A stretch of DNA of 64,000 bases from Pirellulales bacterium (GTDB lineage: Bacteria; Planctomycetota; Planctomycetia; Pirellulales; JAICIG01): NCBI GenBank assembly GCA_035533075.1, contig DATLUO010000029.1, forward strand, positions 1 to 64,000, written 5' to 3'. The position numbers and the translations under genes were made by a program. Numbering within the stretch: the stretch's first letter is position 1; each line of letters opens with the position of its first letter. This document shows positions 20,500 to 37,088 of the stretch, piece after piece. A model generated the notes under the pieces. That model saw only the letters and a program-made list of their open reading frames with translations. It ran no database searches and had not been told where the DNA came from.

Positions 20500-23334
20500 A
20501 TGCTGCCGTTGAGGCTACGGCCGGAGTTTCTCGAGAAGCACATGCGGACGACCGCGATCGAATTGTGCAATAAGCAGAACTCCGGCTGGGCGCAGCGTGC
20601 CAACCCCGGCGAACTGCTGGAAATCACCTATCCGACGTCCGACGTGCAACGTGCGCTCGACGCCGTCTCGACCAGCGCCGGCAAGCCGGTTGTTTTCATC
20701 GGCCCCCGCGGACGCGGCAAGTCGCACATCATGGCCCTGCTGCATTATGCCTTCACGTCGCCGGACGTGGTCGAAGGTTGGGCAGCCCGGTGGTCGGGGC
20801 GAACTGTCGCGCCTCGCCTCGCCGGCTTGAAACTACAGCGCGGCTTCGTGGCAGTATCCGAGACCCTTTCGAACCAGGAATACGCCTTTCTCTGGGACGT
20901 CGTTTTCGAGCGCCACCCGAAGGGACAATACTATCGTGGCAAGTTCGAGCAAGCGGGCACGCCGGTGCCAGCCAAGTCGCTCTTGCAAGATCTGTTCAAA
21001 GAGCAACACACCGCCCTGGTGCTCGACGAGTTTCAGACCTGGTTCGACGGACTGCGCGACGAGCCGGGCGACGAGGGCCGCAAGCTGCGGCATTGGGCGT
21101 TCAATTTCATCCAGATTCTGTCGGAGTTGGCGAAAGAGCGCCCCGATCTGCTTTGTCTTGTCGTCTCGGTACGCGACAACACGACCGAGGCCTACCGGCA
21201 AATCCATCGCGATGCCCCGATTCTGGTCGACTTCAAGGGCGAAACGGCCCGCGAAGATCGCAAACGGCTGCTCCTGCACCGCTTGTTCGAAAACCGTGCA
21301 AACTTCTCTGATGCCGAGGTCGAGCAGGTCGTGGAAACGTATGCCCGCGAACGATGTCGGCTGCTGTTTGGCGATCATGGCCAGGACCACGCCCGCTTGC
21401 GGCGCGAGGTCGTGGACTGCTGGCCCTTCGTGCCGGAGTTGCTCACGCTGCTTGAAGACCGCATTCTGATGGCGGCTGCCGCGCAGGACAAACGCGACAT
21501 GATCCGCATCCTGGCTGAGGTGTTCCGTGCCCGCGGCGCCAGCATGCCCCTGCTCACGGCCGCCGATTTCCATGTTGACGACGATGCTTGCGGCGTGACT
21601 TCGCTTTTGGATTCTTTTGCGACGACCGCCGATCAGGAACAGTTGCGCGTCAAAGCCCAGCGCAACCTGGAAGCGATTCGCGTCGCCGGTGTCGTTGCTC
21701 CGCACGCTCGCGAAGTCATCAGCAGCCTGTGGATGCGCTCCATGGGTGAATCGCAAGAGCTAGGCGGAACTCGCAACGAAGTCCAACTCGACATCACGCG
21801 CGAGGCACCGGTCGACGACAACGCCTTTACCGCGGAACTGGCAGCGATCGTCGACAATAGCTTCAACATCCACCCCGTGGGGGCGCAACAGAAACGCTAT
21901 TGCTTCAAACTACCGGAAAACCCCGGCGCCAAGCTGAAGGCCTCGGCGCGAAACGACCGCCTGTTCGATCCCGGCACGGCCACGGCGCCCGGCCTGTTGC
22001 CGGTGCGGCGCGATCAAGAATTTGTGCGGCAGGTGCTGAGCTACGTTCTCAAGTCGCCCGATGGAGCCAACGAACAGCCGAACGTTCCGATTGTGCTCGA
22101 CCCAAATTGGCAGCGCGCGCCGTGGGCCAACGTGAAGCAAGACGAACAACCGGCCAAATGGCACGAGCATGGAAACCCGGTGCTGATCGCCTTGCCGGAG
22201 CCGCCGGCCGAACTCTCGGCCACGCTTGGCCCCTGGTTGGTGACCAACGTCCCGGTCAATCGCAACATGGTTCGCTTCCTGCTGCCCAAGGCGGGCGCTG
22301 CCAGCATTTACGATGACAAGGATCTGCTGATTACGGCCCGCTGCGCGCTGTTGGCCAAGGAATGGAAAGAGAGCGACACGCATTACGCGGAGTTGCACCG
22401 CCGCTATGAGACCGAACTCAAGAAAGGGCTCGGCGAGCGTTACGACCGCTACGCCCTTCTTGACCGTTGGGATTTTCAGAACCCGGCCAACTGCACCTTC
22501 CACGAAGAGAAGCACCGAGCGACGGGCGGCAAGATTCCCAAGGCGGTCGAAGAACACGTGCGGCTCAACTATTTCGCGCCCGAAGACTTCGAAGCGTTCG
22601 CCCTGGCCGTCGCCGGACGAAACGAGACGATGCGACAGTTATTGGCCTTGTTGCGCAACGAGCCGTTGCCGGGCAAAACGGCGATTCCCTATTTGGGCGA
22701 AGCGGCGGTCTACGAGCAAGTGCTGCGCGTCGCCGCCCGCGGCAAGATCATCCTCAATGTCGGCGGAAAATGGTTGAGCCGAAACGGGAACGAAAGCGAA
22801 GACGAGGCGTTCAGCCATCTTAAGCAACGCGGCTTCCGCACGGGCACGGAAATGTACGGCGTCCAGCTCGGCGACCCCAGCCAGAAGAGCGGCGGCGGAG
22901 TTGTGGTCGTCGTCGGTGAACAGCCAACCGGCTTGCAGCCCGGCCAGCAACCGTTGTGGACGACAACGGAGCCATCCCCCGTTACCGGGCCGAGCGCTGG
23001 TTCGTCCGCAGTCGTCGTCGCTCCTCTGACCGTTCCAGCGCTGCCAGCGGGCGGCGTTCAACCGGCTGGCGTGTTGCCAAATGGCAATGGCTCTACGACG
23101 GTCGTCGTCGCCGCGCCGGTCATTCACCGTTCGTTAGGCGCCAAATCGGGCATCAACCTCCTCGGCGACCTCGAGCGCTGGGCGCTGCCCGACGGCCAGC
23201 GCGTGATACAGGCATCGCTGACGATCAGCGGCGCTACCGTCAAGGAGTTGCGAGAACTTTGTTCCAGGATCCCTGCCAAGATCGTCGCCGAACTGCAGAT
23301 AACTCTGCCGCCTGAGGGGGATGCAGGGCCGTGA
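20500..23334 (+). CDS. Large P-loop ATPase, BrxC/DUF499-like, of a BREX-like defence system
   Basis: 944 aa. Walker A GPRGRGKS at 68-75, Walker B ALVLDEFQTW with D176/E177. The ATPase core is about residues 40-330. A long middle region follows, then a Pro/Val/Gly-rich linker (about 805-880) and a compact C-terminal domain (GINLLGDLERWALPDGQ). Large AAA ATPases with this layout (BrxC/PglY, DUF499, DUF6079) accompany PglZ and DNA methyltransferases in anti-phage loci; which subfamily applies is not settled here. GGAGG is 5 nt before the ATG. Its stop overlaps the GTG of the PglZ gene (GTGA), so the two are translationally coupled. Confidence 0.75.
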   Translation: MLPLRLRPEFLEKHMRTTAIELCNKQNSGWAQRANPGELLEITYPTSDVQRALDAVSTSAGKPVVFIGPRGRGKSHIMALLHYAFTSPDVVEGWAARWSGRTVAPRLAGLKLQRGFVAVSETLSNQEYAFLWDVVFERHPKGQYYRGKFEQAGTPVPAKSLLQDLFKEQHTALVLDEFQTWFDGLRDEPGDEGRKLRHWAFNFIQILSELAKERPDLLCLVVSVRDNTTEAYRQIHRDAPILVDFKGETAREDRKRLLLHRLFENRANFSDAEVEQVVETYARERCRLLFGDHGQDHARLRREVVDCWPFVPELLTLLEDRILMAAAAQDKRDMIRILAEVFRARGASMPLLTAADFHVDDDACGVTSLLDSFATTADQEQLRVKAQRNLEAIRVAGVVAPHAREVISSLWMRSMGESQELGGTRNEVQLDITREAPVDDNAFTAELAAIVDNSFNIHPVGAQQKRYCFKLPENPGAKLKASARNDRLFDPGTATAPGLLPVRRDQEFVRQVLSYVLKSPDGANEQPNVPIVLDPNWQRAPWANVKQDEQPAKWHEHGNPVLIALPEPPAELSATLGPWLVTNVPVNRNMVRFLLPKAGAASIYDDKDLLITARCALLAKEWKESDTHYAELHRRYETELKKGLGERYDRYALLDRWDFQNPANCTFHEEKHRATGGKIPKAVEEHVRLNYFAPEDFEAFALAVAGRNETMRQLLALLRNEPLPGKTAIPYLGEAAVYEQVLRVAARGKIILNVGGKWLSRNGNESEDEAFSHLKQRGFRTGTEMYGVQLGDPSQKSGGGVVVVVGEQPTGLQPGQQPLWTTTEPSPVTGPSAGSSAVVVAPLTVPALPAGGVQPAGVLPNGNGSTTVVVAAPVIHRSLGAKSGINLLGDLERWALPDGQRVIQASLTISGATVKELRELCSRIPAKIVAELQITLPPEGDAGP

Positions 23335-24365
23335 CGACATCGAGCGAGACCACGCGCGGCGGTTTGCCGGAAGGCGATGCTTGGCGCGAACTAATCCTGG
23401 GCCGGGCCGGCAACGTTGCCGACGGCGGTTCGACATGGCGGTCGATCTTCGCGCGGCTGAAGCAGCTTGCGCTGGCCACGACAGACCCTCTGACGTTGCA
23501 CAGGGAATTGGTCGTGCCCGATTGTCTGCTGGCCGAATCAGCTTGGGATCTTTGGGAGCAGTTCCGCCCGGCCGCGCCATCGGCAATCGACCAACTTAAG
23601 CAATTCTGGGCGGCCGGCTCGGCCACGGGCACGGCGGTCTTGATTCTCGACGGACTTTCGCTCCGCGAACTTCCGTTGATCGTCGCCGCCGCGACCGACC
23701 GGGGCATCGCGCCGTTGCGGGTCGAAGTGCGGGCTGCTGAGGTGCCGACAGAAACGGACCAATTCGCTTCAGCCCTAGGCATCGCGGGACGGTCGAAGCT
23801 CTTTAACAACAAGGCACCGGCGGGATTCATTTTTGCCGGTTCCGACGTGTACACCGACGTCCTCGACAGCCCGTTTGCCGATTGCGTGGCTTCGGTTCCT
23901 GCCAGCCCGCGGCTGTTTATTTGGCACAAATGGCCCGACGAGCCGCTGATTCATCTCCATGAGGATAAGCAGGACGGGCCGGCCATTGTCGCCGACACGA
24001 CGCGCAAGGAGCTTTCTTCCGACGGCTTTTGGTCGTTCGTCGATCGACTCCGCCAAGGGCGGCGACTGGCAATCACCTCCGACCACGGCTACGCGGTAAG
24101 CAAACTTTTTTCCAGCGAAGTGACCGACAAGGAAATCGTCAAGCTGCTGCGTGAAACCTTCGGCGCGAAGCGTTGTGCCAAGGTACGCCCTGACCGTCCC
24201 TGGCCCCGTTGCCACTTGCCGCCGTTGGTATGTCAGTACGGCGACTGGCTGGTTGTCATGGGCCAGCGCAAATGGGCCTCGCCAGGCGGGTTCCCTAACC
24301 TCTGCCACCGCGGGCTGTCGTTGCTTGAAGCGGCGGTGCCTTGGGTGGAATTGCCGCCGTTGTAG
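23331..24365 (+). CDS. PglZ-domain protein (short form)
   Basis: 344 aa, start GTG at 23331 within the upstream stop. Alkaline-phosphatase-superfamily features of PglZ are visible: strand plus Asp in AVLILDGLSLREL (D107) and metal-site ITSDHGYAVS (D251, H252). BREX PglZ proteins are usually 650-900 aa, so this is a core-only version lacking long N- and C-terminal extensions. PglZ is essential in known BREX systems, but its substrate there is unclear. The coupling to the ATPase gene argues that the two products work together. Confidence 0.75.
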   Translation: MTTSSETTRGGLPEGDAWRELILGRAGNVADGGSTWRSIFARLKQLALATTDPLTLHRELVVPDCLLAESAWDLWEQFRPAAPSAIDQLKQFWAAGSATGTAVLILDGLSLRELPLIVAAATDRGIAPLRVEVRAAEVPTETDQFASALGIAGRSKLFNNKAPAGFIFAGSDVYTDVLDSPFADCVASVPASPRLFIWHKWPDEPLIHLHEDKQDGPAIVADTTRKELSSDGFWSFVDRLRQGRRLAITSDHGYAVSKLFSSEVTDKEIVKLLRETFGAKRCAKVRPDRPWPRCHLPPLVCQYGDWLVVMGQRKWASPGGFPNLCHRGLSLLEAAVPWVELPPL

Positions 24366-24504: not shown

Positions 24505-25425
24505 ATGGCCAAAGTCGACCGACTAGCAAAGCTGTTTCACGCGTTGGCGCACGGCGATAATGCGCGGGCCGAACAGGTCGCTGCCGACATATGCGCGGAC
24601 GAGGAGCAACGAGGGCACCGCTCCGCGGCGCGTCTGCTTCGCGGCGCATTAAGGAAAAACGGCAACGGAGTCGTGCGATTCAGCCAACCGTTAGACGCGC
24701 CGTCGGAAGCGTCATTGCAGCCTCTCTTGCCAAACGCCGCGCTGACTGCGCTATCCCATACGATCGGCCTCGCTGACGTTGTGCTGAAAAAGCGGTGGCG
24801 TGACGAACTCGACGGATTTGTCCGCGAGTGGCGGCAACGGTCGGTGTTGCAACAACGCGGAATTCGGAGAAGGACGAAGCTCTTCTTTTATGGTCCACCG
24901 GGTTGTGGCAAGAGCTTAACCGCGCGTGCGTTGGCCAAGGAACTCGGGTTGCCAATCTACGTTGTTCGCTTCGACGGGGTGATTGGTGCGTATTTGGGTC
25001 AAACCGCCATTCACCTACGTCAATTGTTCCATTTTGCGGAATCGGTTCCGTGCATCTTGTTGTTCGATGAGTTAGACGCCTTGGGTAAAAAACGAGGCAA
25101 TCCTCTGGACGTAGGCGAGTTGGACCGAATTGTTATCGCCTTAATGCAAGAGTTGGAGCACACATCGCCAAGCGGTGCGATCATCGCCACTTCAAATTTG
25201 CCGCGCCACGTTGACGACGCACTTTGGCGTCGGTTTGACCTGGCGGTCCAGTTCCCTTCCCCGACCAAGGCCGAGCTACAGGCATTCGGCAAAAGCATCG
25301 CGACGACCCATCAGATAAGCTTTGGGCCTAGAATCAAACGACGCATCGCCACTGCCAAGAGTTTTGCCGAAGCGGAGAAGCTAGTCGAGGCCGAAGCGCG
25401 GCGAATGGCGCTGAGCGAGGGATAA
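24505..25425 (+). CDS. ietA: IetA-like AAA ATPase of an IetAS pair
   Basis: 306 aa. An N-terminal helical region of about 120 residues precedes a FtsH/Cdc48-type AAA module: Walker A GPPGCGKS at 130-137, Walker B CILLFDELDALG with D188/E189, and sensor-1 IIATSNLP. The pairing with a subtilase directly downstream (8-nt gap) is the IetA-IetS layout, first described as a plasmid stability pair and later reported as an anti-phage system; by that precedent IetA restrains IetS. The gene is visibly more AT-rich than its neighbours, so the pair was probably acquired separately from the surrounding BREX-like genes. Confidence 0.8.
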   Translation: MAKVDRLAKLFHALAHGDNARAEQVAADICADEEQRGHRSAARLLRGALRKNGNGVVRFSQPLDAPSEASLQPLLPNAALTALSHTIGLADVVLKKRWRDELDGFVREWRQRSVLQQRGIRRRTKLFFYGPPGCGKSLTARALAKELGLPIYVVRFDGVIGAYLGQTAIHLRQLFHFAESVPCILLFDELDALGKKRGNPLDVGELDRIVIALMQELEHTSPSGAIIATSNLPRHVDDALWRRFDLAVQFPSPTKAELQAFGKSIATTHQISFGPRIKRRIATAKSFAEAEKLVEAEARRMALSEG

Positions 25426-25433
25426 CGGTAGCC

Positions 25434-27794
25434 ATGCCAAAAAGCCATGATCAGGTCACGCCAAAGACCTACTTCCTCAATGAGCAGCATGAGCTTCCTC
25501 ACGATGAGAAGAGAGGCGGCGGACAACTACCCAAGTTCGCCAACATCGACTGGGCCGCTAAGGGCGAGACTCTCAACCAAACGCTCAACGCCGCTGTCCA
25601 GAGACTCGATGGATCTAAAGACCCGTTGCGTAGAGAGCGGTATTTTCTTTTGGCGGCACCAGCACCGGTGGAAAAGACGTCAACCGATAAGAAGAAAGCG
25701 CCGGATGGAACATTCGTCGAACCAACCGATTTTTCCAGGACACAATCACGGGTCTTCGGAAGGCTTGGGTTAGACCTCATTGAGGTGACCGACGACGGTC
25801 GAGCGGTGGTTCATGCGAAGGCCGAACGCTTGGAACAGTTGAAGCTCTGGTCGGGCTCTTTGGATCAACTTGGCGCCAGGGAACAAGCGCGCTGGGCGAC
25901 GCTCGATTCATTTGACACGATTCCGCCCGACTTGCGGATCGACTCGCAATGGTGGCAGTCGCTGAAGAAAAAGTTGCCCGTCGACGCGCTCGTTGAACTT
26001 CAACCTCTGTTGACCCGGTCCGAGGTTGAACGCGTCATGCGCTCGATCGCTGATCTATTGCTCGATAAGCAGCAGGAGAAACTTACTGCAACGGGTAGCG
26101 ATTTATCGGGGCGGTTTTGGTTGCGAGGTTCAATCAGTCCGGAATCCCTACGCGAAATTGCAAACGAATTCTTCTCAGTTCAATCGCTCCATCCGCCCCT
26201 CTATTCGATGGCTGCCGCGATAAGCCGCTCGCGATCGGCGGCCAGCGCCGCGCTGGCGCCGCCGACGGCGATCGATGTGTCGACGCTTCCATCCATTGGC
26301 GTGCTCGATTCAGGCGTCCCAGATGGCCATGTGCTGCTCGCGCCGTATCGCCGCGGAACCGTTGTTGGGCCAACGTCAATTGGGCGAGCGGTTGGCGACC
26401 ACGGTTCGAAAGTTGCATCGCGTATCGTCTTCGGCGAGCAGGATTTTTCAGGCGGCGTAAACGCGGTGGCCGGAAGTTGCAGATTTCTTGACGTCCAGGT
26501 TTCAATGGGACATGGGCAATATGATGACAAGGGGATACTCGATGCGCTCGTGACGGCGATTCGCGCCCATCCCGATGTTCGCGTCTTCAATTTGAGCCTG
26601 GCGGACCAGCAACCTGTCGACAGCTATACCCCAGTCGAAAGACGCGAGCGCTTGCGCTCGCTGCAAGACCTTGACTGCCTGGTTTTTGAAACCGATGTGG
26701 TGGTCGTGGTCGCTGCGGGAAACACGCTGGCCGGCGTGGTGCCGACTCCCGCCTACCCGGACCATGTTGAGGTCCAGGACTGGCGCCTTGGCGTGTGGGC
26801 ATCTGGCTTTAATACTCTTGTTTGTGGTTCATATGTCGGTCGCCTTGGCATCGGCGGTCTGGCACAACTCGGTTGGCCGAGCCCGTTCACCCGCATAGGT
26901 CCAGGGATCGCTGGCGCGCCAGTTCCGGGATATTCGGCTGCTGGCGGCAATTCCAACGCAGCCCATCGGTTTGTGCCAGGGCTCGGTGAATGGGTATGCA
27001 CCGACGTTGGGCGTTGGGAAGACCACTCGGGTACTTCCTTCGCCGCCCCCTTGCTGGCGCGTGAGGCTGCGTTCGGCTTCGACCTGCTACAGCATTACTG
27101 CCAGCAAGGAGCGAGACCGTTCGGTGTTACGCTCAAGGCTTTTCTCGCTCTTGCGGCAATAAGCCCGCAGGTACCGGCGCATGTTCAGCCGCTCACCCAA
27201 CGCACGCTTGGGCGAGGAGCGACGAGCGCCGCACGATTGCGAACACCAGATCCCAATCGTGCGGTAATGCTTTGGCAAGGCACCATCGATGGTCCAAGCG
27301 ATGAGGTAAGCGTTCAGTTGCCGATTCCGAGCGACTGGTTGAACGACGCGCAAAAGCCTGTGCTGCGGCTCATTGCCTGTTGGGACCCGCCCGTCAATGA
27401 AGCCGCACGCGGAATTTGGGCGTCTCGGCGGGTTTCAACAAAATTGCGACGAGGGCCGGACGAGAAAGCTGAGCGCGGCGGCAGAGGTAATCATGTGAGC
27501 TATCCCCTGCTTGAACGCAGTTATGACCTACAGAAAGCTGTCGGCCTGACCTCCATCGATGGCGACATTTGGCTTGTGGAACTGGCATACGATGAGATTG
27601 CCGATTACCGCGCCGGAACAGATTTCACGCCCCAACAGCGCGTGGCATTCGCGGCTGAATTGTGTGACCTGGGGGAGAATCCAACCAGTCCGCAGGCAGC
27701 CATGCAAGCGCTGCCAATAGCTGCAACAATGCAACGACTCAGCGTGCCACCGGCGGCGGTTCGCGCTCCGATAGTCCTTAAATCGCGCTTTTAG
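25434..27794 (+). CDS. ietS: IetS-like subtilisin (S8) protease
   Basis: 786 aa. The N-terminal 280 residues are charged and have no signal peptide, so the enzyme is intracellular. The S8 domain has a full triad: D292 in IGVLDSG, H323 in GDHGSKVA, S535 in GTSFAAP. A C-terminal region (about 590-786) with beta-rich stretches follows. In IetAS the protease is the effector or toxin, held in check by the ATPase. Codon and base composition resemble ietA and differ from the flanking methyltransferase gene. Overall length is within that of known IetS proteins. Confidence 0.82.
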   Translation: MPKSHDQVTPKTYFLNEQHELPHDEKRGGGQLPKFANIDWAAKGETLNQTLNAAVQRLDGSKDPLRRERYFLLAAPAPVEKTSTDKKKAPDGTFVEPTDFSRTQSRVFGRLGLDLIEVTDDGRAVVHAKAERLEQLKLWSGSLDQLGAREQARWATLDSFDTIPPDLRIDSQWWQSLKKKLPVDALVELQPLLTRSEVERVMRSIADLLLDKQQEKLTATGSDLSGRFWLRGSISPESLREIANEFFSVQSLHPPLYSMAAAISRSRSAASAALAPPTAIDVSTLPSIGVLDSGVPDGHVLLAPYRRGTVVGPTSIGRAVGDHGSKVASRIVFGEQDFSGGVNAVAGSCRFLDVQVSMGHGQYDDKGILDALVTAIRAHPDVRVFNLSLADQQPVDSYTPVERRERLRSLQDLDCLVFETDVVVVVAAGNTLAGVVPTPAYPDHVEVQDWRLGVWASGFNTLVCGSYVGRLGIGGLAQLGWPSPFTRIGPGIAGAPVPGYSAAGGNSNAAHRFVPGLGEWVCTDVGRWEDHSGTSFAAPLLAREAAFGFDLLQHYCQQGARPFGVTLKAFLALAAISPQVPAHVQPLTQRTLGRGATSAARLRTPDPNRAVMLWQGTIDGPSDEVSVQLPIPSDWLNDAQKPVLRLIACWDPPVNEAARGIWASRRVSTKLRRGPDEKAERGGRGNHVSYPLLERSYDLQKAVGLTSIDGDIWLVELAYDEIADYRAGTDFTPQQRVAFAAELCDLGENPTSPQAAMQALPIAATMQRLSVPPAAVRAPIVLKSRF

Positions 27795-27814: not shown

Positions 27815-30800
27815 ATGGCCAAACCCAAAGCCGCTCCTGACCAGCTCACCTTTCCGGGCGTCGAACTCGACTCGCAAGACAAGTTCGATTTCGCACTGCC
27901 CGGCGGACGGCGCGCTGCGCGGCGAGCTGACGAAGACGACGAAAGCCATCTGCCGCCGAATCTGGGGCAGCCGGTCAAGCTGCTGGTGCCGGACTTCTCG
28001 GATCCGAATCGGCCGAAGACGTGCTTGGAGGTCGATTTCCCGATCGTGCCGATCAACGCGCTGTCGATCCTGGAAGGGAACGCGGGCAAGCCGATCTACC
28101 AGATGAGCAAGTGGTGGGCGCGCAGGCGGAGCTGTGTCTTCAGGGCAATGCTCATCGCCGCGGCTACGCAAGCGCCGTTTCGCAAACATCCCGATGGTTC
28201 GCCGGTGCTCGACGAAAATGGCCGGCCGCTGCCCGACGATACCGAGGCGGCCAAGGCCGTCTGGGACGTTTATTATGCCAACCATCAGGCCGGCGGCAAC
28301 TTCAAGCACCTCAAAGTGCTCGACTGCTTCATGGGTGGTGGCACCACGCTCGTCGAAGGCTCGCGGCTGGGCTTCCAGGTGACCGGCGTCGATCTCAATC
28401 CGGTCGCCTGGTTTGTCGTCAAGAACGAGCTGGCCTGCACCGATCCGGCCGAAGTCAAAGCCTTTTTCGCTTCGATCGAGGCCGAAGTCAAGCCGCTCAT
28501 TCAGCCGTTTTATGTGACCGATTGCCCGCGGGGACATAAGGGGACGTGGTTCGACGTGGCGACCGGCAAGCCGGTCGAGGAGGATGGACTCGGCGAATCT
28601 CTGCTCTGTAGGGAACGCCCTCCGTGGCGTTCCGCGAGCCCCGCGGCGGCGTCGAGCCCCACGCCGCGAAACGCCACGCCGCGGAACGCCACGGAGGGCG
28701 TTCCCTACAGAGAAACCGAAGAGGCACTGGGAAGGCCATCCTCCCAACGCTTCGATCCCGCCACGCTGCCGCCGGAAGAGCGCAAGCGATACCGCTACGA
28801 AGGCCCCGAAATCATCTATACCTTCTGGGCCAAGCACGGGCCTTGCACCAAGCCGGGCTGCGGCCACCGCACGCCCGTATTTCGCTCGCCGGTGATCGCC
28901 GAGAAAAAGCTGGGCGTGAAATACATTCCGCTCACGTGCAAGTCGTGCAAGACGCGGTTCCACGCCGAACTGGGAAGTGCCCGCATGGCGCCGGCGGCCG
29001 AGCGCGTGGTGCTCGACAGCGAAGAGCCGTTCACGGAGCTTTCGCAGCCCTTTGCCCGGTTGCTGGCGGAATACGGACAGGGGAACAAAGACGACAAGCG
29101 GGCCCGCGCGGCGGAACTGTTCGGCATGGTCGAAAGCGAGCCGGGGCTGCGCTGCCCCAAGTGCGGCGCGTTTGCCGGGCAATATCTGCGCGACGTGTTG
29201 AACAACCATCGCCAGGCCCAGACTGCCAAGGCGATCGACAAAAAGGATCTCAAGATCGAGCCTGCCCGCAACAGCACGAAGCCGGTTTATTGCTACCTGC
29301 TGATTCACCCCGACTGGCTGCAAGGCTCGCCCGGCACGCTCGACGGCGAAGAGGTGGGCGGCTACGCCGACGCGCCGGTCGAGGCCACGGCCCGCTGGTA
29401 TCGTGAGCGCTTGAAGAATCTCTCGCTGATCGAGGTCCGCGGCCGCATTCGGCTGGCCGACGACAGTTCTCTGCGCGACGCGACCGACGCTGTGGAGGCG
29501 GCCGAAGCGGACGAAACAGCAGAGAGTGACGTGGAGCCCGAAGCCGAAGACCGCAAGACCTACGGCCTGCCGCGGTTTATCACGCTGGCCGACGGCCGGA
29601 AGATCGATACCCGCAAGACGACGTTCATCCGCAAGGCCACGATCGCCTGTCAGTCATGCGGGCAGCCCGACGGCATCATCGAGGCGCTGCGGCGCGCCAA
29701 GCACAGCGCGCCGCTGGCGCCCTACGCATTGCAGTGCTTTTGCCCGCAGTGCAAAGCCGAGGGGCACGTCTACGATGGGCGTTACTTCACTGCCCCGACG
29801 AAAGATGACACTCATCGGCTGACCGCCGCCATGAATGAATGGGACGGCGAGAAAAATGGCGTGCTCGCGCCGTATTGGCCGACGGATGAGATCCCGTATG
29901 GCTGGCAAACCCATTACTGGAGCATCGGGGATCACGGTTATACGCACTGGTATCGCTTTTTCAACCCGCGTCAGCTTCTAACCCACGCGAGCCTGTTGCG
30001 GTCGATCGCACGAAATCCAAATGCGCCAAGCGCGGTGCGCGACCAGGCTCTTGGAGCGCTGGAACAGTATCTGCGAAATCAGAACATGTACTGCATCTGG
30101 GACGTCTCTCGCGACTGCATGGCGCCGTTTTACTCCAACAATCACTTCGTGCCCAAGCATCTCGTTGTCGAGAATAGCGTCTTTCCAATGCTGGGACGCG
30201 GCAACTGGCAATCATGCACCGAAAAGGTCATCGAAGGTCTGGCGTGGGCCAACCAACCGTGGGAACCGTATCTCGCCACGAGCGACGGTTCTTCGGTGAG
30301 CGGCAAGGTCGAGCCGGGGGACGCCGTGCGGCCTGGCGGCGCCACCATCACCTGCGGATCGTCGAGCGACATGCCGGCGATCGCCGGTCGGTCCGTGGAC
30401 CTCGTGATCACCGACCCGCCGTTCGGCGACAACTTCATCTATTCGGAGATGGCCAACTTCTTCTATGCCTGGCTGCGGCTGGGCTTGAAGGAACGACGTC
30501 CGGACGTGTTTGCGCCGGCCGCTTCGCCGTTCGCCCAGGAAGCCGTGAAGAACGTGGCCCATCACCACGCCGACGCCGATCAGTTCTATAAGACGATGAT
30601 GACGGCGTGCTGGGCGGAGTGCGTGCGCGTGCTGAAAGACGCGGGCTTGCTCGCCTTCACGTTCCACCACAGCGAGGACAGCCAATGGGTGATCGTGTTG
30701 GAGAGCCTGTTCGACGCCGGGCTGATCCTGGAGGCCACCATTCCCATTGCCAGCGATGAATCGAAAGGTGAAGGCGCGGCCTTTGGATCGAAAAAGATCG

Positions 30801-31594
30801 AATACGACATCATCCACGTCTGCCGCAAGCGGCTGGCCGAACCGACGAAAGTGAGTTGGGCCAAGATGCGGCAATGGGTCAAAGCGGAACTGAAGCGTCT
30901 GCGCCGGCTGCTCGAAGCCTACAAAGCGAGCGAACTGTCGGAGGCCGACATCCGCGTCATTCTCCGCGGCAAGGCATTGGAGTTCTACAGCCGGCACTAC
31001 GGGCAGGTCTATACCGCCGAGGACGAGGCCATGTCGATCGAGCGCGCGCTGTTGGGCATCAATCAGTTGCTCGATGAAGACACGGGTGGGCCCGGCGAGC
31101 GGCCACCGAGCATCGTTAGCCCGCTCGCCTACCAGTTCTTGAGATTGTTCGGCAGCCGAGCGGCATTGCCGCGCGACGAGCTGGGCAAGAATTTGCGCGG
31201 CACCGGCATCGTGCAACGCGAGTTCGAGGACCTCGGCTGGATCCAAGAGGAGGCGAAAACGGTCTACCGCGTGCCGATCGCCGAACGGTTCGAAAAACTC
31301 CGGCAGCGGCCGCGGAAGGAGATGAAAACCGAAATCGACCAGGCGCACTTCTTGATCGGCGCGGCGCTGGCCGGCAGCGGCATGAACCTGGAAAACGAGT
31401 TTGCCAAAAACACCTGGATCGTTCGCCGCACGGTGGAAGCGGTGCTCGTCTGGTACAGCCAGACCGCCGTCGAGCCGGAAATTCGGGAGGCCGCCACGTT
31501 GGCCGCCACGCTGCTGCGCCGCAGCATCGAAGAGCGCCGCACGCAGCTTCGCGACGAGCAGGGCGTGCTATTCGACGAGGCCGACCTAGACTGA
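27815..31594 (+). CDS. DUF1156-type DNA methyltransferase with zinc ribbons
   Basis: 1259 aa. N-terminal DUF1156-like part (about 75-135, ALSILEGNAGKPIYQMSKWW). SAM motif I DCFMGGGTT at 170-178; catalytic motif IV DPPF at 867-870 (LVITDPPFGDNFIY), as in adenine-N6 or cytosine-N4 enzymes. Between the motifs are Cys-rich ribbons (CTKPGCGH from residue 344, CKSCK, CPKCG, CQSCG, CPQC). This COG1743-like architecture is the PglXI type of BREX type 3. Residues about 264-300 are encoded by an inserted palindrome (28604-28712) yet the frame stays open. Its role would be host DNA modification; the site is unknown. Confidence 0.85.
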   Translation: MAKPKAAPDQLTFPGVELDSQDKFDFALPGGRRAARRADEDDESHLPPNLGQPVKLLVPDFSDPNRPKTCLEVDFPIVPINALSILEGNAGKPIYQMSKWWARRRSCVFRAMLIAAATQAPFRKHPDGSPVLDENGRPLPDDTEAAKAVWDVYYANHQAGGNFKHLKVLDCFMGGGTTLVEGSRLGFQVTGVDLNPVAWFVVKNELACTDPAEVKAFFASIEAEVKPLIQPFYVTDCPRGHKGTWFDVATGKPVEEDGLGESLLCRERPPWRSASPAAASSPTPRNATPRNATEGVPYRETEEALGRPSSQRFDPATLPPEERKRYRYEGPEIIYTFWAKHGPCTKPGCGHRTPVFRSPVIAEKKLGVKYIPLTCKSCKTRFHAELGSARMAPAAERVVLDSEEPFTELSQPFARLLAEYGQGNKDDKRARAAELFGMVESEPGLRCPKCGAFAGQYLRDVLNNHRQAQTAKAIDKKDLKIEPARNSTKPVYCYLLIHPDWLQGSPGTLDGEEVGGYADAPVEATARWYRERLKNLSLIEVRGRIRLADDSSLRDATDAVEAAEADETAESDVEPEAEDRKTYGLPRFITLADGRKIDTRKTTFIRKATIACQSCGQPDGIIEALRRAKHSAPLAPYALQCFCPQCKAEGHVYDGRYFTAPTKDDTHRLTAAMNEWDGEKNGVLAPYWPTDEIPYGWQTHYWSIGDHGYTHWYRFFNPRQLLTHASLLRSIARNPNAPSAVRDQALGALEQYLRNQNMYCIWDVSRDCMAPFYSNNHFVPKHLVVENSVFPMLGRGNWQSCTEKVIEGLAWANQPWEPYLATSDGSSVSGKVEPGDAVRPGGATITCGSSSDMPAIAGRSVDLVITDPPFGDNFIYSEMANFFYAWLRLGLKERRPDVFAPAASPFAQEAVKNVAHHHADADQFYKTMMTACWAECVRVLKDAGLLAFTFHHSEDSQWVIVLESLFDAGLILEATIPIASDESKGEGAAFGSKKIEYDIIHVCRKRLAEPTKVSWAKMRQWVKAELKRLRRLLEAYKASELSEADIRVILRGKALEFYSRHYGQVYTAEDEAMSIERALLGINQLLDEDTGGPGERPPSIVSPLAYQFLRLFGSRAALPRDELGKNLRGTGIVQREFEDLGWIQEEAKTVYRVPIAERFEKLRQRPRKEMKTEIDQAHFLIGAALAGSGMNLENEFAKNTWIVRRTVEAVLVWYSQTAVEPEIREAATLAATLLRRSIEERRTQLRDEQGVLFDEADLD
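28604..28712. repeat. Palindromic element (perfect 33-bp arms) inside the methyltransferase gene
   Basis: 28604-28636 and 28680-28712 are exact reverse complements over 33 bp (core GGAACGCCCTCCGTGGCG), separated by 43 nt that are themselves partly palindromic. In another plus-strand frame it encodes the peptide GNALRGVPR that recurs in planctomycete sequences. It interrupts the region between the N-terminal domain and the first zinc ribbon without breaking the frame. Confidence 0.92.
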
Positions 31595-33713: not shown

Positions 33714-34226
33714 ATGCAAGAACTGACCTCCAGCAGTTGGCGTCGCAGAGGCTGCAGCATCGTCTGGTCGCCGGAGCTGCTGAGCGATCTTATTGTCGAG
33801 CAAGACGCCGTGCCGTTGCGTACGGTGCTCACCTGGATGGCCAGTGGCTTTCCCGATTCACCGCCTGGCGACCGGCCGACCGTGCTGGTGGGCGGACTGC
33901 AAACGGTTCTGTCGACCGCGAGCTCCTCGTCAGCCGATGCCGTTTACGACTGGCTGCGGCAAAATATGCTGCCGCTGGTGCGGGCGTTTCAGAGCCGCTG
34001 GGACCGCGTCGGCTTGGTGTTCGTCATGGACGGCCCGCGGCAACTGTTCGATTACAACATGGCCGACGACGTGATCTATTTCGGCAGTGCCGGGCAAGAC
34101 CGCGCAAAAAAGATTAAACTGTCGCTGGGAATCTGGAACGGCGCTCTGACGGGCGACGGTGCCTATGAGTTGATTGTGCCCGACAAAAAGGAGACGGGCG
34201 GTTATCATGTCCAGCGAGTTAGTTGA
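33714..34226 (+). CDS. Uncharacterised 170-aa protein of the defence cluster
   Basis: 170 aa, cytoplasmic. It alternates predicted strands and helices: RPTVLVGGLQTVL, DAVYDWLRQNMLPLVRAFQ, RVGLVFVMDGP, DDVIYFG, then a C-terminal GAYELIVPDKKETGGYHVQR. There is no P-loop, so it is not an obvious BrxF, although size and location (beside the helicase and methyltransferase) match that small accessory gene of BREX type 3. I do not recognise a family. It lies 90 nt before the helicase in the same orientation. Confidence 0.6.
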   Translation: MQELTSSSWRRRGCSIVWSPELLSDLIVEQDAVPLRTVLTWMASGFPDSPPGDRPTVLVGGLQTVLSTASSSSADAVYDWLRQNMLPLVRAFQSRWDRVGLVFVMDGPRQLFDYNMADDVIYFGSAGQDRAKKIKLSLGIWNGALTGDGAYELIVPDKKETGGYHVQRVS

Positions 34227-34247
34227 CTTCAGCCGGCCTCACCCCAG

Positions 34248-34307
34248 CCCTCTCCCGGAGGGAGAGGGAGACAGATACCACCCCGGCCTTCTCCTGGAGG
34301 GAGAGGG
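34248..34307. repeat. Two REP-like hairpins before the helicase gene
   Basis: 34248-34268 (CCCTCTCCCGGAGGGAGAGGG) is a near-perfect hairpin, and 34287-34307 is a variant copy (CCTTCTCCTGGAGGGAGAGGG). The second 3' arm ends 9 nt before the helicase ATG and contains the only Shine-Dalgarno-like sequence there, so folding of the element would mask it. Confidence 0.7.
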
Positions 34308-34316
34308 AACAAGACC

Positions 34317-37088
34317 ATGTCCAGCGTATTAGATGAGCTGAGTGCGGGGCAAACCGTCTCGCACTCGGAAATGGGAAACGGCGTATTCCTCTCGGCCGTG
34401 GCCGGCGGCTATGCGCGGGTCTTCTTTCAACAGCTTGGCGAGCGTCAGGTGGCCATCACCTCGCTCGTGCCCGCGTTGTCGTGGGAAGAAGAGGTGGTCT
34501 CGAATGTCCGGCCCGCCACGCGCGAAGCAGTCGAACGGTTGTGGCTGGCCTTGGAGGCCGAACAGATTCCCCTGCTGGAGAACGCGGCCACGCTCACATC
34601 CGCCAAGGTCGACCTGCTGCCGCACCAGATCGTGCTCACGTATCGCATCGCGAACGCCTCGCCGCGGCGGTTTCTGATCGCCGACAGCGTCGGCTTGGGC
34701 AAGACGATTGAGACGGCGCTGATTCTGCGCGAGCTGGCTTCGCGCGGTGAGCTGTCCCGAGCGCTGATGGTCGTGCCCGCCGGCCTGGTCGAAAACTGGC
34801 GACGCGAGCTGAACGACACCTTCCACCTCGATTTCGAGGTGTTCGGCAGCGAAGGCGACGTGACCGACCGCAAGACCAACGCCTTTGCCAAGCACAACCG
34901 GCTGATCGCCAGTATCGATACGCTCAAGCGCCCGCAGCGCGTCAAGCGAATTCTGCAGGCGCCTCCGTGGGACCTGATCGTGTTCGACGAAGCGCACCAT
35001 CTAACCGCCTATCAGTCGGGCACCAAAACCACGAAGACGCAGAATTTCAAACTCGCCGAGGCGCTGCGCGATCACAGCCGCGACTTGCTGTTGCTCTCCG
35101 CCACGCCGCACCAGGGCGATCACTTCCGCTTTTGGATGCTGGTGCGGCTGTTGAACCCGACGCTGTTCACCGGCACCGACGATATGATCAACAACCGGCA
35201 TCGGCTGAACGCGGTTGTCTTTCGCCGCACTCAGGCCGACGCGTGCGACGCCCACGGCGAGCCGCTGTTCTCGCGACGGCAGGTCCACACGCAGAGCTTT
35301 CCTCTTTCACCGCCGGAAAAAGCGTTCTATGACGCCCTGATGGACTACCTGCGCGACGGTTACAATCTGGCCGAAGCAGCCGGCAGCCAGGGCCGCGCGC
35401 TGGGATTCGTGATGACGATCTTTCAGAAGATCGCGGCCAGCAGCTTTGCCGCGGTCGGCACCACCCTGCGGCGCCGGCTGCTGGGCCTGACGCTGCACGA
35501 GGCGATCGTTTGCGACGAGAACCTGGATGCCGACGGCCGCGACCGGGCCTTGGAAGCGGCCCGGCAGCAGATTCGCTCGATGTTCGGCCTGGCCAACGAC
35601 GGCCTGGGCCGTGCCGAGGCCGATCGGATTCTCGCCGACGCCAAGCTGCGGCTGCTGAGAAAACTTGGCGAAAAGGTCGACGTCGACACCGACGCCAGTG
35701 AAACCAAAGCAGCCGGCGACGAAGAGGCGGCGGCGAGCCTGGTCGCCGTGGCGCTGCCGGCCGAACGAAAGCGAATTTCCGAATTGCTGGCCATGATGCC
35801 GCACGGCGACGAAAGCAAAACGCTGGAGCTATTGCGGGCACTGGCCGATTTGTGGGCGATGCACCCGCGGGAAAAGATCGTCGTCTTCACGACGTATTTA
35901 GGAAGTGTCGATGCATTGCGGGCCGCCATTGAAAGGCAATTTCCCGGTTATGGCGTCGATGTGCTCAAGGGCGGCGACCACGGCGCGAAGGTCGCGGCCG
36001 AACGGCGTTTCAGAAAGCCCGACGGACCGCGGGTGCTGATTTGCACCGCGGCCGGGCGCGAGGGCATCAACCTGCAATTCGCGCGCGTCTTGTTCAACCA
36101 TGACCTCCCCTGGAACCCGATGGACCTGGAGCAGCGGATTGGCCGAATCCATCGCTACGGCCAGGCCCACACGGCGCAGGTTTACAACCTGGTGTCGGCC
36201 GACACGATCGAAGGCGAGATTTTCCTGCTCTTGGAAGAGAAGTTGCTCGAAATTGCGAAAGCTTTGGGCAAAGTTGACGAACTGGGGCAGGTGACTGAGG
36301 ATTTGCGCGGCCAGATTCTTGGTCAGCTCTCGGAGCGTGTGTCGTACGACAGGCTTTATCAAGACGCCGTCAAGGATCCGACGCTCCGGCGCACGCGGCA
36401 AGAGCTGGAAGTCGCATTGGAGAACGCGCGGATGGCGCGGCAGGTCGTCTTTGAGTTGTTCCAGGACCTGGAAGGCTTTCGCCTCGACGACTACAAGCAA
36501 TTCGACGACGGCGGGCAGGCGCTGCGCCGGTTGCTGGCTTTCGTGCGTGAAGCCGTGCGGCATGATGGCGGAGTTTTTCAGGCGGAGAATGCAACGACGT
36601 TCAAGGTATCGGTCAATGGCGATGGCGCATTATTGCTGACCACCGACCGCGATGCGGCCAAGCGTGACGAGAAGCTGACGCTTCTTGGGCTCGAGCATCC
36701 TTTCGTGAGACGTCTGATCGACCATCACCAGCAGTTGCCTTCGACGGCCCGTGCGCTGGTCGGCCGCTTACCTCGCAACGGTGATTCGCGCGGAGCGATC
36801 AGCACCTGGCACGTCCAGGCGCAGGCCGGCAAGGGCCAGTTTTATCAGCGAATTGTGACTGTGGGATTGGGTGCGAACGGTGAACGGTCCCCGATTGTCG
36901 AACGGCACGCCGACGAAATACTCGAGCTTGAGCCGGTCAACGCGGCAGTCTTCGACGCCGGACATCGAACCAAAGTGGTCCGTTTGACCATCCCGGAGAT
37001 GATCCGTCGCGATCTCTCTCATGCCGGTATGCTCAGCGCTGAGAGTTCAGTTAGCGCTCGGCTGCTGGGCTGGGTGGAACTTTGCTAG
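34317..37088 (+). CDS. SNF2/Swi2-family DEAH helicase of the BREX-like cluster
   Basis: 923 aa. Helicase motifs in order: I GLGKT at 126-130, II DEAHH from 224, III LLSATPHQGD, a long insert with charged helices (about 390-500), IV-V KIVVFTTYLGS and CTAAGREGINLQ, and VI QRIGRIHRYGQ. The C-terminal 230 residues are unassigned. Helicases of this SNF2/COG0553 class are BrxHII in BREX type 3 and also occur with DUF1156 methyltransferases in other anti-phage loci. It is the last gene of the plus-strand island. The role would be DNA translocation; that is inference. Confidence 0.88.
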   Translation: MSSVLDELSAGQTVSHSEMGNGVFLSAVAGGYARVFFQQLGERQVAITSLVPALSWEEEVVSNVRPATREAVERLWLALEAEQIPLLENAATLTSAKVDLLPHQIVLTYRIANASPRRFLIADSVGLGKTIETALILRELASRGELSRALMVVPAGLVENWRRELNDTFHLDFEVFGSEGDVTDRKTNAFAKHNRLIASIDTLKRPQRVKRILQAPPWDLIVFDEAHHLTAYQSGTKTTKTQNFKLAEALRDHSRDLLLLSATPHQGDHFRFWMLVRLLNPTLFTGTDDMINNRHRLNAVVFRRTQADACDAHGEPLFSRRQVHTQSFPLSPPEKAFYDALMDYLRDGYNLAEAAGSQGRALGFVMTIFQKIAASSFAAVGTTLRRRLLGLTLHEAIVCDENLDADGRDRALEAARQQIRSMFGLANDGLGRAEADRILADAKLRLLRKLGEKVDVDTDASETKAAGDEEAAASLVAVALPAERKRISELLAMMPHGDESKTLELLRALADLWAMHPREKIVVFTTYLGSVDALRAAIERQFPGYGVDVLKGGDHGAKVAAERRFRKPDGPRVLICTAAGREGINLQFARVLFNHDLPWNPMDLEQRIGRIHRYGQAHTAQVYNLVSADTIEGEIFLLLEEKLLEIAKALGKVDELGQVTEDLRGQILGQLSERVSYDRLYQDAVKDPTLRRTRQELEVALENARMARQVVFELFQDLEGFRLDDYKQFDDGGQALRRLLAFVREAVRHDGGVFQAENATTFKVSVNGDGALLLTTDRDAAKRDEKLTLLGLEHPFVRRLIDHHQQLPSTARALVGRLPRNGDSRGAISTWHVQAQAGKGQFYQRIVTVGLGANGERSPIVERHADEILELEPVNAAVFDAGHRTKVVRLTIPEMIRRDLSHAGMLSAESSVSARLLGWVELC

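What the first reader, a model, noticed from the sequence alone, without database searches (positions are those of the whole stretch)
33714..34226. Orphan 170-aa protein in the position of BrxF
Seen: a compact alpha/beta protein without a P-loop, between the ImmA-like gene and the helicase. Inference: it may be a novel accessory component replacing BrxF, or a specificity factor.
Basis: inference. Interest (0 to 1): 0.55.

Follow-up and report, generated by a model that had tools for sequence, protein, structure and literature searches.

The report
BrxB-like subunit of BREX-related defence
The small unnamed protein is a regular, fast-evolving part of a five-gene bacterial anti-phage system related to BREX (the published 'Type-3 BR' kind), where it most likely links the ATPase to the DNA-cutting enzyme; it is a useful annotation rather than a new kind of system.

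Summary
The gene is real, but not an orphan. Relatives of the 170-aa protein (P170) occur in Planctomycetota, Pseudomonadota, rhizobial plasmids and IMG/VR contigs. They sit in one conserved operon: DUF499 ATPase, ~330-aa PglZ-like phosphodiesterase, DUF1156 methyltransferase, P170, SNF2 helicase. All five genes are on 21 of 29 loci examined, several of which are contig fragments. This gene set matches the 'Type-3 BR' (BREX-related) systems described in January 2026 (PMC12839542), whose fifth component is an inactive STAND/AAA+ protein, the counterpart of BrxB/BrxF. P170 fits that slot: no Walker A motif in any of 24 members; a modest model (pLDDT 67.6) that is alpha/beta, weakly resembles P-loop NTPases, and has extra strands after the fourth core position and no C-terminal helical bundle. 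A divergent 142-aa protein fills the same place in two more loci. No sequence-level link to BrxF could be shown. So 'position of BrxF' is right; 'orphan' is wrong; 'accessory or specificity factor' is unsupported. Best reading: a dead AAA+ adaptor that docks on the DUF499 ATPase and tethers PglZ. In the window the operon is interrupted by IetAS genes, an ImmA-like gene and a dispersed repeat.

The parts
33714..34226 (+). P170: BrxB/BrxF-like dead AAA+ (iSTAND) candidate, 170 aa
   Evidence: intact ORF; 24 aligned members; model pLDDT 67.6, pTM 0.70; conserved operon position
34317..37088 (+). SNF2-family (BrxHII/HmaA/DrmD-like) helicase, 923 aa, no nuclease domain reported
   Evidence: Pfam SNF2-rel 1.2e-19 and Helicase_C 7.7e-18; PADLOC HmaA 6e-97, BrxHI|BrxHII 2.8e-90
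27815..31594 (+). DUF1156/N6-methyltransferase, 1259 aa
   Evidence: Pfam N6_N4_Mtase 9e-8, DUF1156 8.7e-5; PADLOC HmaB 1.5e-31
23331..24365 (+). standalone PglZ-like phosphodiesterase, 344 aa
   Evidence: motifs ILDGLS, TSDHGY, H(G/R)GLSLLE in alignment A5; hhalign to PF08665 hits score 59.1 against a shuffle maximum of 18.6
20500..23334 (+). DUF499-type AAA+ ATPase, 944 aa, Walker A GPRGRGKS and Walker B LVLDEF intact
   Evidence: Pfam DUF499 5.9e-5, just under the curated cut-off; motifs; homologous to the DUF499-annotated genes of relatives
24505..27794 (+). IetA and IetS genes (a second defence system) between PglZ and methyltransferase
   Evidence: PADLOC IetA 9.8e-65, IetS 2.6e-31; same insertion place in L057
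31609..33533 (+). 120-aa ORF (weak NsnC C-terminal match) and 525-aa ImmA/IrrE-domain protein, between methyltransferase and P170
   Evidence: PADLOC NsnC 6.7e-5, capP 7.5e-16; Pfam Peptidase_M78 2.2e-10
34224..34316 (.). dispersed repeat between P170 and helicase, flanked by two near-copies of the P170-helicase overlap
   Evidence: 36 matches in the own genome, this one included; copies at 34207 and 34317, 17 of 20 identical

Best explanation
P170 is the inactive AAA+/STAND-like subunit (counterpart of BrxB and BrxF) of a DUF499-centred, BREX-related Type-3 BR restriction system. Inferred mechanism: P170 packs against the nucleotide-binding face of the DUF499 ATPase as a pseudo-subunit that cannot bind or hydrolyse ATP itself, offers a conserved arginine (best candidates R36, then R11) to the ATPase's pocket, limits ATPase self-assembly, and tethers the PglZ nuclease. 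The methyltransferase marks self DNA; on unmarked invading DNA the ATPase-P170-PglZ assembly, with the helicase, is remodelled into a restricting state in which PglZ nicks or cuts. Shown here: the gene set, order, conservation, missing Walker motif, and intact ATPase, methyltransferase and helicase motifs. Inferred by analogy with Type-1 BREX structures in the literature: docking on the ATPase, tethering of PglZ, and the switch.
For: Conserved five-gene operon. In 392 sampled genomes of the phylum, the 7 with a strong PglZ (p344) match are exactly the 7 with a strong P170 match. Published Type-3 BR definition: DUF499, DUF1156-type MTase, helicase without nuclease fusion, standalone PglZ, iSTAND. 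p344 is PglZ-like. P170 model: the listed structural matches are almost all P-loop NTPases, though weak (best E 0.082, best Z 4.6); element order E13-17, H, H, E56-60, H, H74-95, E100-104, then E112-115, E120-123, E150-155, E158-166, no terminal helical bundle. No Walker A in 24 of 24. P170 is the least conserved of the five genes in 15 of 16 loci where all five could be compared, as stated for iSTANDs. R36 is invariant in 18 of 18, R11 in 17 of 18. Type-1 BREX: crystal structure with BrxB on the BrxC AAA+ domain, supplying an arginine, and bound to PglZ; the same authors call the Type-3 BR component a BrxB homologue.
Against: hhalign finds no similarity between P170 and BrxF (score 12.3; 20 of 40 column shuffles score as high), and no member matches Pfam BrxB or any PADLOC model even at E<=10. 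The structural model rests on 5 sequences and no structural match is significant (0 at E<=0.001). In Type-1 BREX, BrxB binds an N-terminal PglZ domain (residues 1-96) which the 344-aa PglZ may not have, so the contact would have to differ. R36 has no clear counterpart in the 142-aa proteins. I could not see the paper's alignments of the Type-3 BR iSTAND, so identity of P170 with that family is by gene set and description, not by sequence.
Confidence: 0.66

Rival explanations
1. P170 is a helicase partner: it works with the SNF2 helicase (its nearest downstream neighbour, often overlapping) as a loader or target-DNA reader rather than as an ATPase-PglZ adaptor.
For: P170 and helicase overlap by 17 nt in 5 loci and lie within 30 nt in most others; a helicase match is present in 26 of 27 P170 loci.
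Against: The methyltransferase is as constant upstream (26 of 26 loci where upstream sequence is held); inserts of more than 1 kb separate P170 from the helicase in L020, L022 and L056; two loci keep P170 but have lost the helicase wholly or mostly (L054, L055).
Confidence: 0.15
2. P170 is the functional stand-in for DUF3780, the small reader protein of Type-2 BR systems.
For: Similar size and a place in a related operon (literature).
Against: No profile similarity to a DUF3780 sequence (score 11.5, 28 of 40 shuffles as high, one DUF3780 sequence only); DUF3780 is described as a four-stranded antiparallel sheet with five helices, unlike the model; the operon has PglZ, which the paper gives to Type-3 BR, not Type-2.
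Confidence: 0.06
3. P170 is an unrelated regulatory or sensing protein whose model resembles P-loop proteins only by chance.
For: Modest model confidence and weak structural matches; no family match.
Against: Near-strict conservation as a core gene across phyla and match to the published five-component set.
Confidence: 0.13

Closest known systems
Type-3 BR (DUF499-centred BREX-related) systems, iSTAND component (PMC12839542; sections 13, 28-33 and search passages read)
   Same: same partner genes: DUF499 ATPase, DUF1156 MTase, helicase without nuclease fusion, standalone PglZ, small protein with no Walker motif, rapid evolution
   Different: sequences of the published iSTAND could not be compared; the window operon additionally carries IetAS, ImmA-like and 120-aa genes inside it
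BrxB of Type-1 BREX (PMC12205998, PMC13326643)
   Same: inactive AAA+-like protein in the same system as a BrxC/DUF499-type ATPase and PglZ
   Different: no Pfam BrxB match in 24 of 24 members; the partner PglZ here is minimal
BrxF of Type-3 BREX (NCBIfam NF033453)
   Different: the 7 BrxF sequences read here keep a Walker A; no sequence similarity to P170
Hma system (HmaA helicase, HmaB methyltransferase, HmaC ATPase; PADLOC)
   Same: helicase and methyltransferase match HmaA and HmaB models; the 2026 paper folds Hma into BR systems
   Different: Hma as the paper describes it is the three-gene core, without PglZ or P170

Membership tests
Type-3 BR system | DUF499-type AAA+ ATPase | tested here: met
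   Pfam DUF499 E 5.9e-5 (21.5 bits, cut-off 23) for the window, 1.3e-5 (23.6 bits, over the cut-off) for L014; plasmid homologues annotated DUF499; Walker A and B intact
Type-3 BR system | DUF1156-containing N6-methyltransferase | tested here: met
   Pfam DUF1156 8.7e-5 (23 bits, cut-off 24) and N6_N4_Mtase 9e-8
Type-3 BR system | SNF2 helicase without fused nuclease | tested here: met
   923 aa; the 7 Pfam models at E<=1 are helicase/ATPase types and RapA_C, no nuclease domain
Type-3 BR system | N-terminal TUDOR domain of the helicase | not tested
   no tool call addressed it
Type-3 BR system | standalone PglZ | tested here: met
   hhalign to PF08665 hits E 4.5e-8, 0 of 40 shuffles as high; PglZ-type motifs; but Pfam PglZ matched only 1 of 12 members, E 0.0051, and the structure model was too poor to use
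iSTAND (BrxB/BrxF-like inactive STAND NTPase) | eroded Walker A/B | tested here: met
   no GxxxxGK[ST] in 24 of 24; Walker B was not tested separately
iSTAND (BrxB/BrxF-like inactive STAND NTPase) | STAND/AAA+-like core fold | tested here: inconclusive
   alpha/beta model, pLDDT 67.6; P-loop NTPases dominate weak matches
iSTAND (BrxB/BrxF-like inactive STAND NTPase) | three-stranded antiparallel insert after strand 4 | tested here: inconclusive
   strands 112-115, 120-123, 150-155 follow 100-104 in the model, but in blocks of pLDDT about 47-61, and their pairing was not inspected
iSTAND (BrxB/BrxF-like inactive STAND NTPase) | no C-terminal helical bundle | tested here: met
   model ends in strands 150-155 and 158-166
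BrxF (NF033453) | profile match | tested here: not met
   no NCBIfam hit at E<=1; hhalign indistinguishable from shuffles
BrxB (PF08747) | profile match | tested here: not met
   0 of 24 members at E<=10
DUF3780 (Type-2 BR) | profile match | tested here: not met
   no Pfam hit; hhalign to one member indistinguishable from shuffles

The most novel reading that the evidence does not exclude
P170 is a separately evolved dead-ATPase adaptor, not descended from BrxB or BrxF, and the Type-3 BR operon is a platform whose internal junctions repeatedly take up whole second defence systems (IetAS between PglZ and methyltransferase in two phyla; OLD-type HEC-01 cassettes at more than one junction), so that nested systems share its regulation and act as back-up when the BR core is blocked.
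Probability: 0.2. Interest if true: 0.55.

Novelty: new member of a known kind. Interest (0 to 1): 0.3.

Why it matters
It names a protein that none of four family libraries recognises and gives a family profile for finding Type-3 BR systems that current tools match only in part (as Hma). The minimal five-protein set, with a small standalone PglZ and a 170-aa adaptor, is an easier object than Type-1 BREX for asking how a dead AAA+ subunit switches a BREX-like complex from methylation to restriction. The conserved arginines give a direct test.

Tried and rejected
Searches of four family libraries with P170 and with 24 members at E<=10 (PADLOC: none; Pfam: one member to BLF1 at E 0.0044 and one to RIIa at 0.12, taken as chance because 23 of 24 members do not match). 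PDB sequence search with the 10-row profile: one match at E 0.11, FhuF, taken as chance. Viral structure library: AAA/RecA-type proteins are frequent but none at E<=0.001. The PglZ structure prediction failed (pLDDT 41.6) and was not searched. A BrxB-P170 profile comparison was meant, but the BrxB extraction came back empty and was not repeated; the BrxB test rests on Pfam alone. DUF3780: 0 of 149 genomes of the window's phylum (where the control genomes were silent too) and 1 of 249 of the other phylum. The 142-aa counterpart was not found in plasmids or viral contigs. Weak P170 matches at E 0.002-0.01 in six genomes cover short parts of the protein and were dropped as probable chance. In one search, three weak PglZ matches were kept and examined: two have the 142-aa protein, the third contig ends inside the methyltransferase.

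Full report
What is there. The ORF at 33714-34226 (+) encodes an intact 170-aa protein, here P170. It lies between an ImmA/IrrE-domain gene and an SNF2-family helicase. No model of Pfam, PADLOC, NCBIfam or PHROGs matches it at E<=1.

It is not an orphan. A tblastn search of species genomes found three relatives with 55-60% identity (Pirellulales, Rhodopirellula sp., a betaproteobacterial MAG). In 392 genomes of the window's phylum 13 matched at E<=0.01, of which 7 (window included) at E<=4.3e-7; the other six are short partial matches. A profile search of 299 genomes of a second phylum, that of the betaproteobacterial MAG, gave 5 hits including the centre genome. Three plasmids, of Aminobacter, Ensifer and Candidatus Tenderia, carry it, and so do eight IMG/VR contigs (one contig was found by both).

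It belongs to a fixed operon. tblastn of the window genes shows the order DUF499 ATPase, ~330-aa protein, DUF1156 methyltransferase, P170, SNF2 helicase. Of 29 loci examined, 21 hold all five genes; several of the rest are cut by contig ends. Of 27 loci with P170 or its 142-aa counterpart, 26 have a helicase match downstream on the same strand, and all 26 with upstream sequence have the methyltransferase. Exceptions count against 'always': L054 has no helicase in about 5 kb, where HDOD and OmpA-family genes follow, and L055 keeps only 64 residues of helicase and 121 of methyltransferase. Some loci are near copies of each other (L084, L085 and L086), so counts are not independent events. In the phylum sample the seven genomes with a strong PglZ-like match are the same seven with a strong P170 match; in G286 they lie on different contigs.

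The second gene is PglZ-like. The members aligned here share ILDGLS-type, TSDHGY-type and HGGLSLLE-type motifs, and hhalign against PF08665 hits gives E 4.5e-8 with 0 of 40 column shuffles as high. Against: Pfam's own PglZ model matches only 1 of 12 members (E 0.0051) and the structure model failed. That these motifs are the catalytic ones of PglZ is recalled, not tested.

This gene set is published. Rakesh and Krishnan 2026 (PMC12839542; abstract, sections 13, 28-33 and search passages read) define DUF499-centred BREX-related (BR) systems. Their Type-3 BR has the ATPase, methyltransferase, a helicase without nuclease fusion, a standalone PglZ, and in 82% of taxa a small inactive STAND protein (iSTAND) with eroded Walker motifs, an insert after strand 4, no C-terminal helical bundle, and rapid evolution. 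The helicase and methyltransferase score with PADLOC's HmaA and HmaB; the paper merges Hma into BR.

P170 against that description. No Walker A in 24 of 24. AlphaFold2 with 5 sequences: pLDDT 67.6, pTM 0.70, alternating strands and helices up to strand 100-104, then several strands and a terminal strand 158-166. Foldseek and VIA-align list almost only Rad51, KaiC, RadA, DMC1 and AAA+ proteins (my reading of the entry titles), all weak: best E 0.082, best Z 4.6. Z below 8 may only mean a common arrangement, so the fold is likely, not shown. P170 is the least conserved gene in 15 of 16 loci with all five comparisons (best-segment identities to the window; the exception is L014). Divergent loci L049 and L050 have a 142-aa protein at the same place with a weak profile link to P170 (score 24.6, shuffle maximum 18.2, 0 of 40).

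No sequence link to BrxF. The seven BrxF sequences collected here have a Walker A; hhalign gives a score that half of the shuffles reach. Nothing matches Pfam BrxB. So P170 sits like BrxB/BrxF and probably works like them, but membership by sequence was tested and not met.

Mechanism. [quoted passage not shown] abstract, sections 29 and 35). A crystal structure shows BrxB on the BrxC AAA+ domain with an ATP between them and a BrxB arginine in the pocket; a BrxB mutant that breaks this contact loses restriction but largely keeps methylation (PMC13326643; abstract, part 1 of section 28, section 31). The same paper calls the Type-3 BR component a BrxB homologue. By analogy P170 should cap the DUF499 ATPase and tether PglZ. 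R36 is invariant in 18 of 18 and R11 in 17 of 18, the candidates for the arginine; R36 has no clear counterpart in the 142-aa form. The Type-1 docking site on PglZ (residues 1-96) may be absent in the 344-aa PglZ, so that contact is open.

State of the window's copy. ATPase motifs are intact, and the methyltransferase and helicase reading frames are full length with their usual motifs in the translation (helicase and methyltransferase motif names recalled). Three disturbances: IetAS between PglZ and methyltransferase, a 120-aa plus ImmA-like pair between methyltransferase and P170, and a repeat between P170 and helicase. In several relatives P170 and helicase overlap by 17 nt, in most others they lie close; here the overlap sequence occurs twice (17 of 20 identical, 110 nt apart) around a repeat with 36 matches in the genome, so both genes keep their ends. 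The window's PglZ has HRGLS where the other 11 aligned have HGGLS.

Inserts recur. Gaps over 1 kb between core genes occur between PglZ and methyltransferase (4 of 23 loci measured), methyltransferase and P170 (5 of 26) and P170 and helicase (3 of 26), never between ATPase and PglZ (0 of 23). Contents include IetAS in the window and L057, HEC-01 type ATPase or partner genes in L020, L052 and L056, and a class-3 lipase in L022. The BR paper reports OLD-ABC modules as back-up effectors; its main text has no hit for 'Iet', 'lipase' or 'ImmA'.

Verdict. An ordinary but so far unlabelled core subunit of a recently described system: interest 0.3, new member of a known kind.

Noticed in passing
window 24505-27794; L057 12928-16577 (-): IetA and IetS sit inside the BR operon at the same junction (PglZ-methyltransferase) in two different phyla; an IetA also lies about 3.5 kb after the helicase in L088.
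   Followed up: partly
L052 2157-3940 (-), L020 9250-10440 (+), L056 10633-12515 (+): OLD/AAA-type ATPase and/or a DUF4276-like partner (PADLOC HEC-01) inserted at different BR junctions; a similar ATPase ORF stands in L018 16821-18008 (-).
   Followed up: partly
L022 8066-9244, L027 8686-9945: A class-3 lipase-like gene between methyltransferase and P170 in a planctomycete genome and, by eye, in an IMG/VR contig (Pfam checked for L022 only).
   Followed up: partly
window 34207-34336: Dispersed repeat (36 matches in the genome) at the P170-helicase overlap with duplication of the overlap, preserving both reading frames.
   Followed up: partly
window 23331-24365: The PglZ-like protein has HRGLS where the other aligned members have HGGLS; it could weaken the active site.
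   Followed up: no
L015 1796-3613: A 423-aa protein and a 180-aa protein without Pfam (E<=0.01) or PADLOC (E<=0.001) match stand between methyltransferase and P170.
   Followed up: partly
L083, L084, L085, L087, L088: Five IMG/VR contigs carry the complete five-gene system (L027 is a sixth); whether these are true viruses, prophages or misassigned contigs was not examined.
   Followed up: no
L014 13288-14370: MTaX1-HNH protein directly after the helicase (Pfam), a possible extra nuclease of the system.
   Followed up: no
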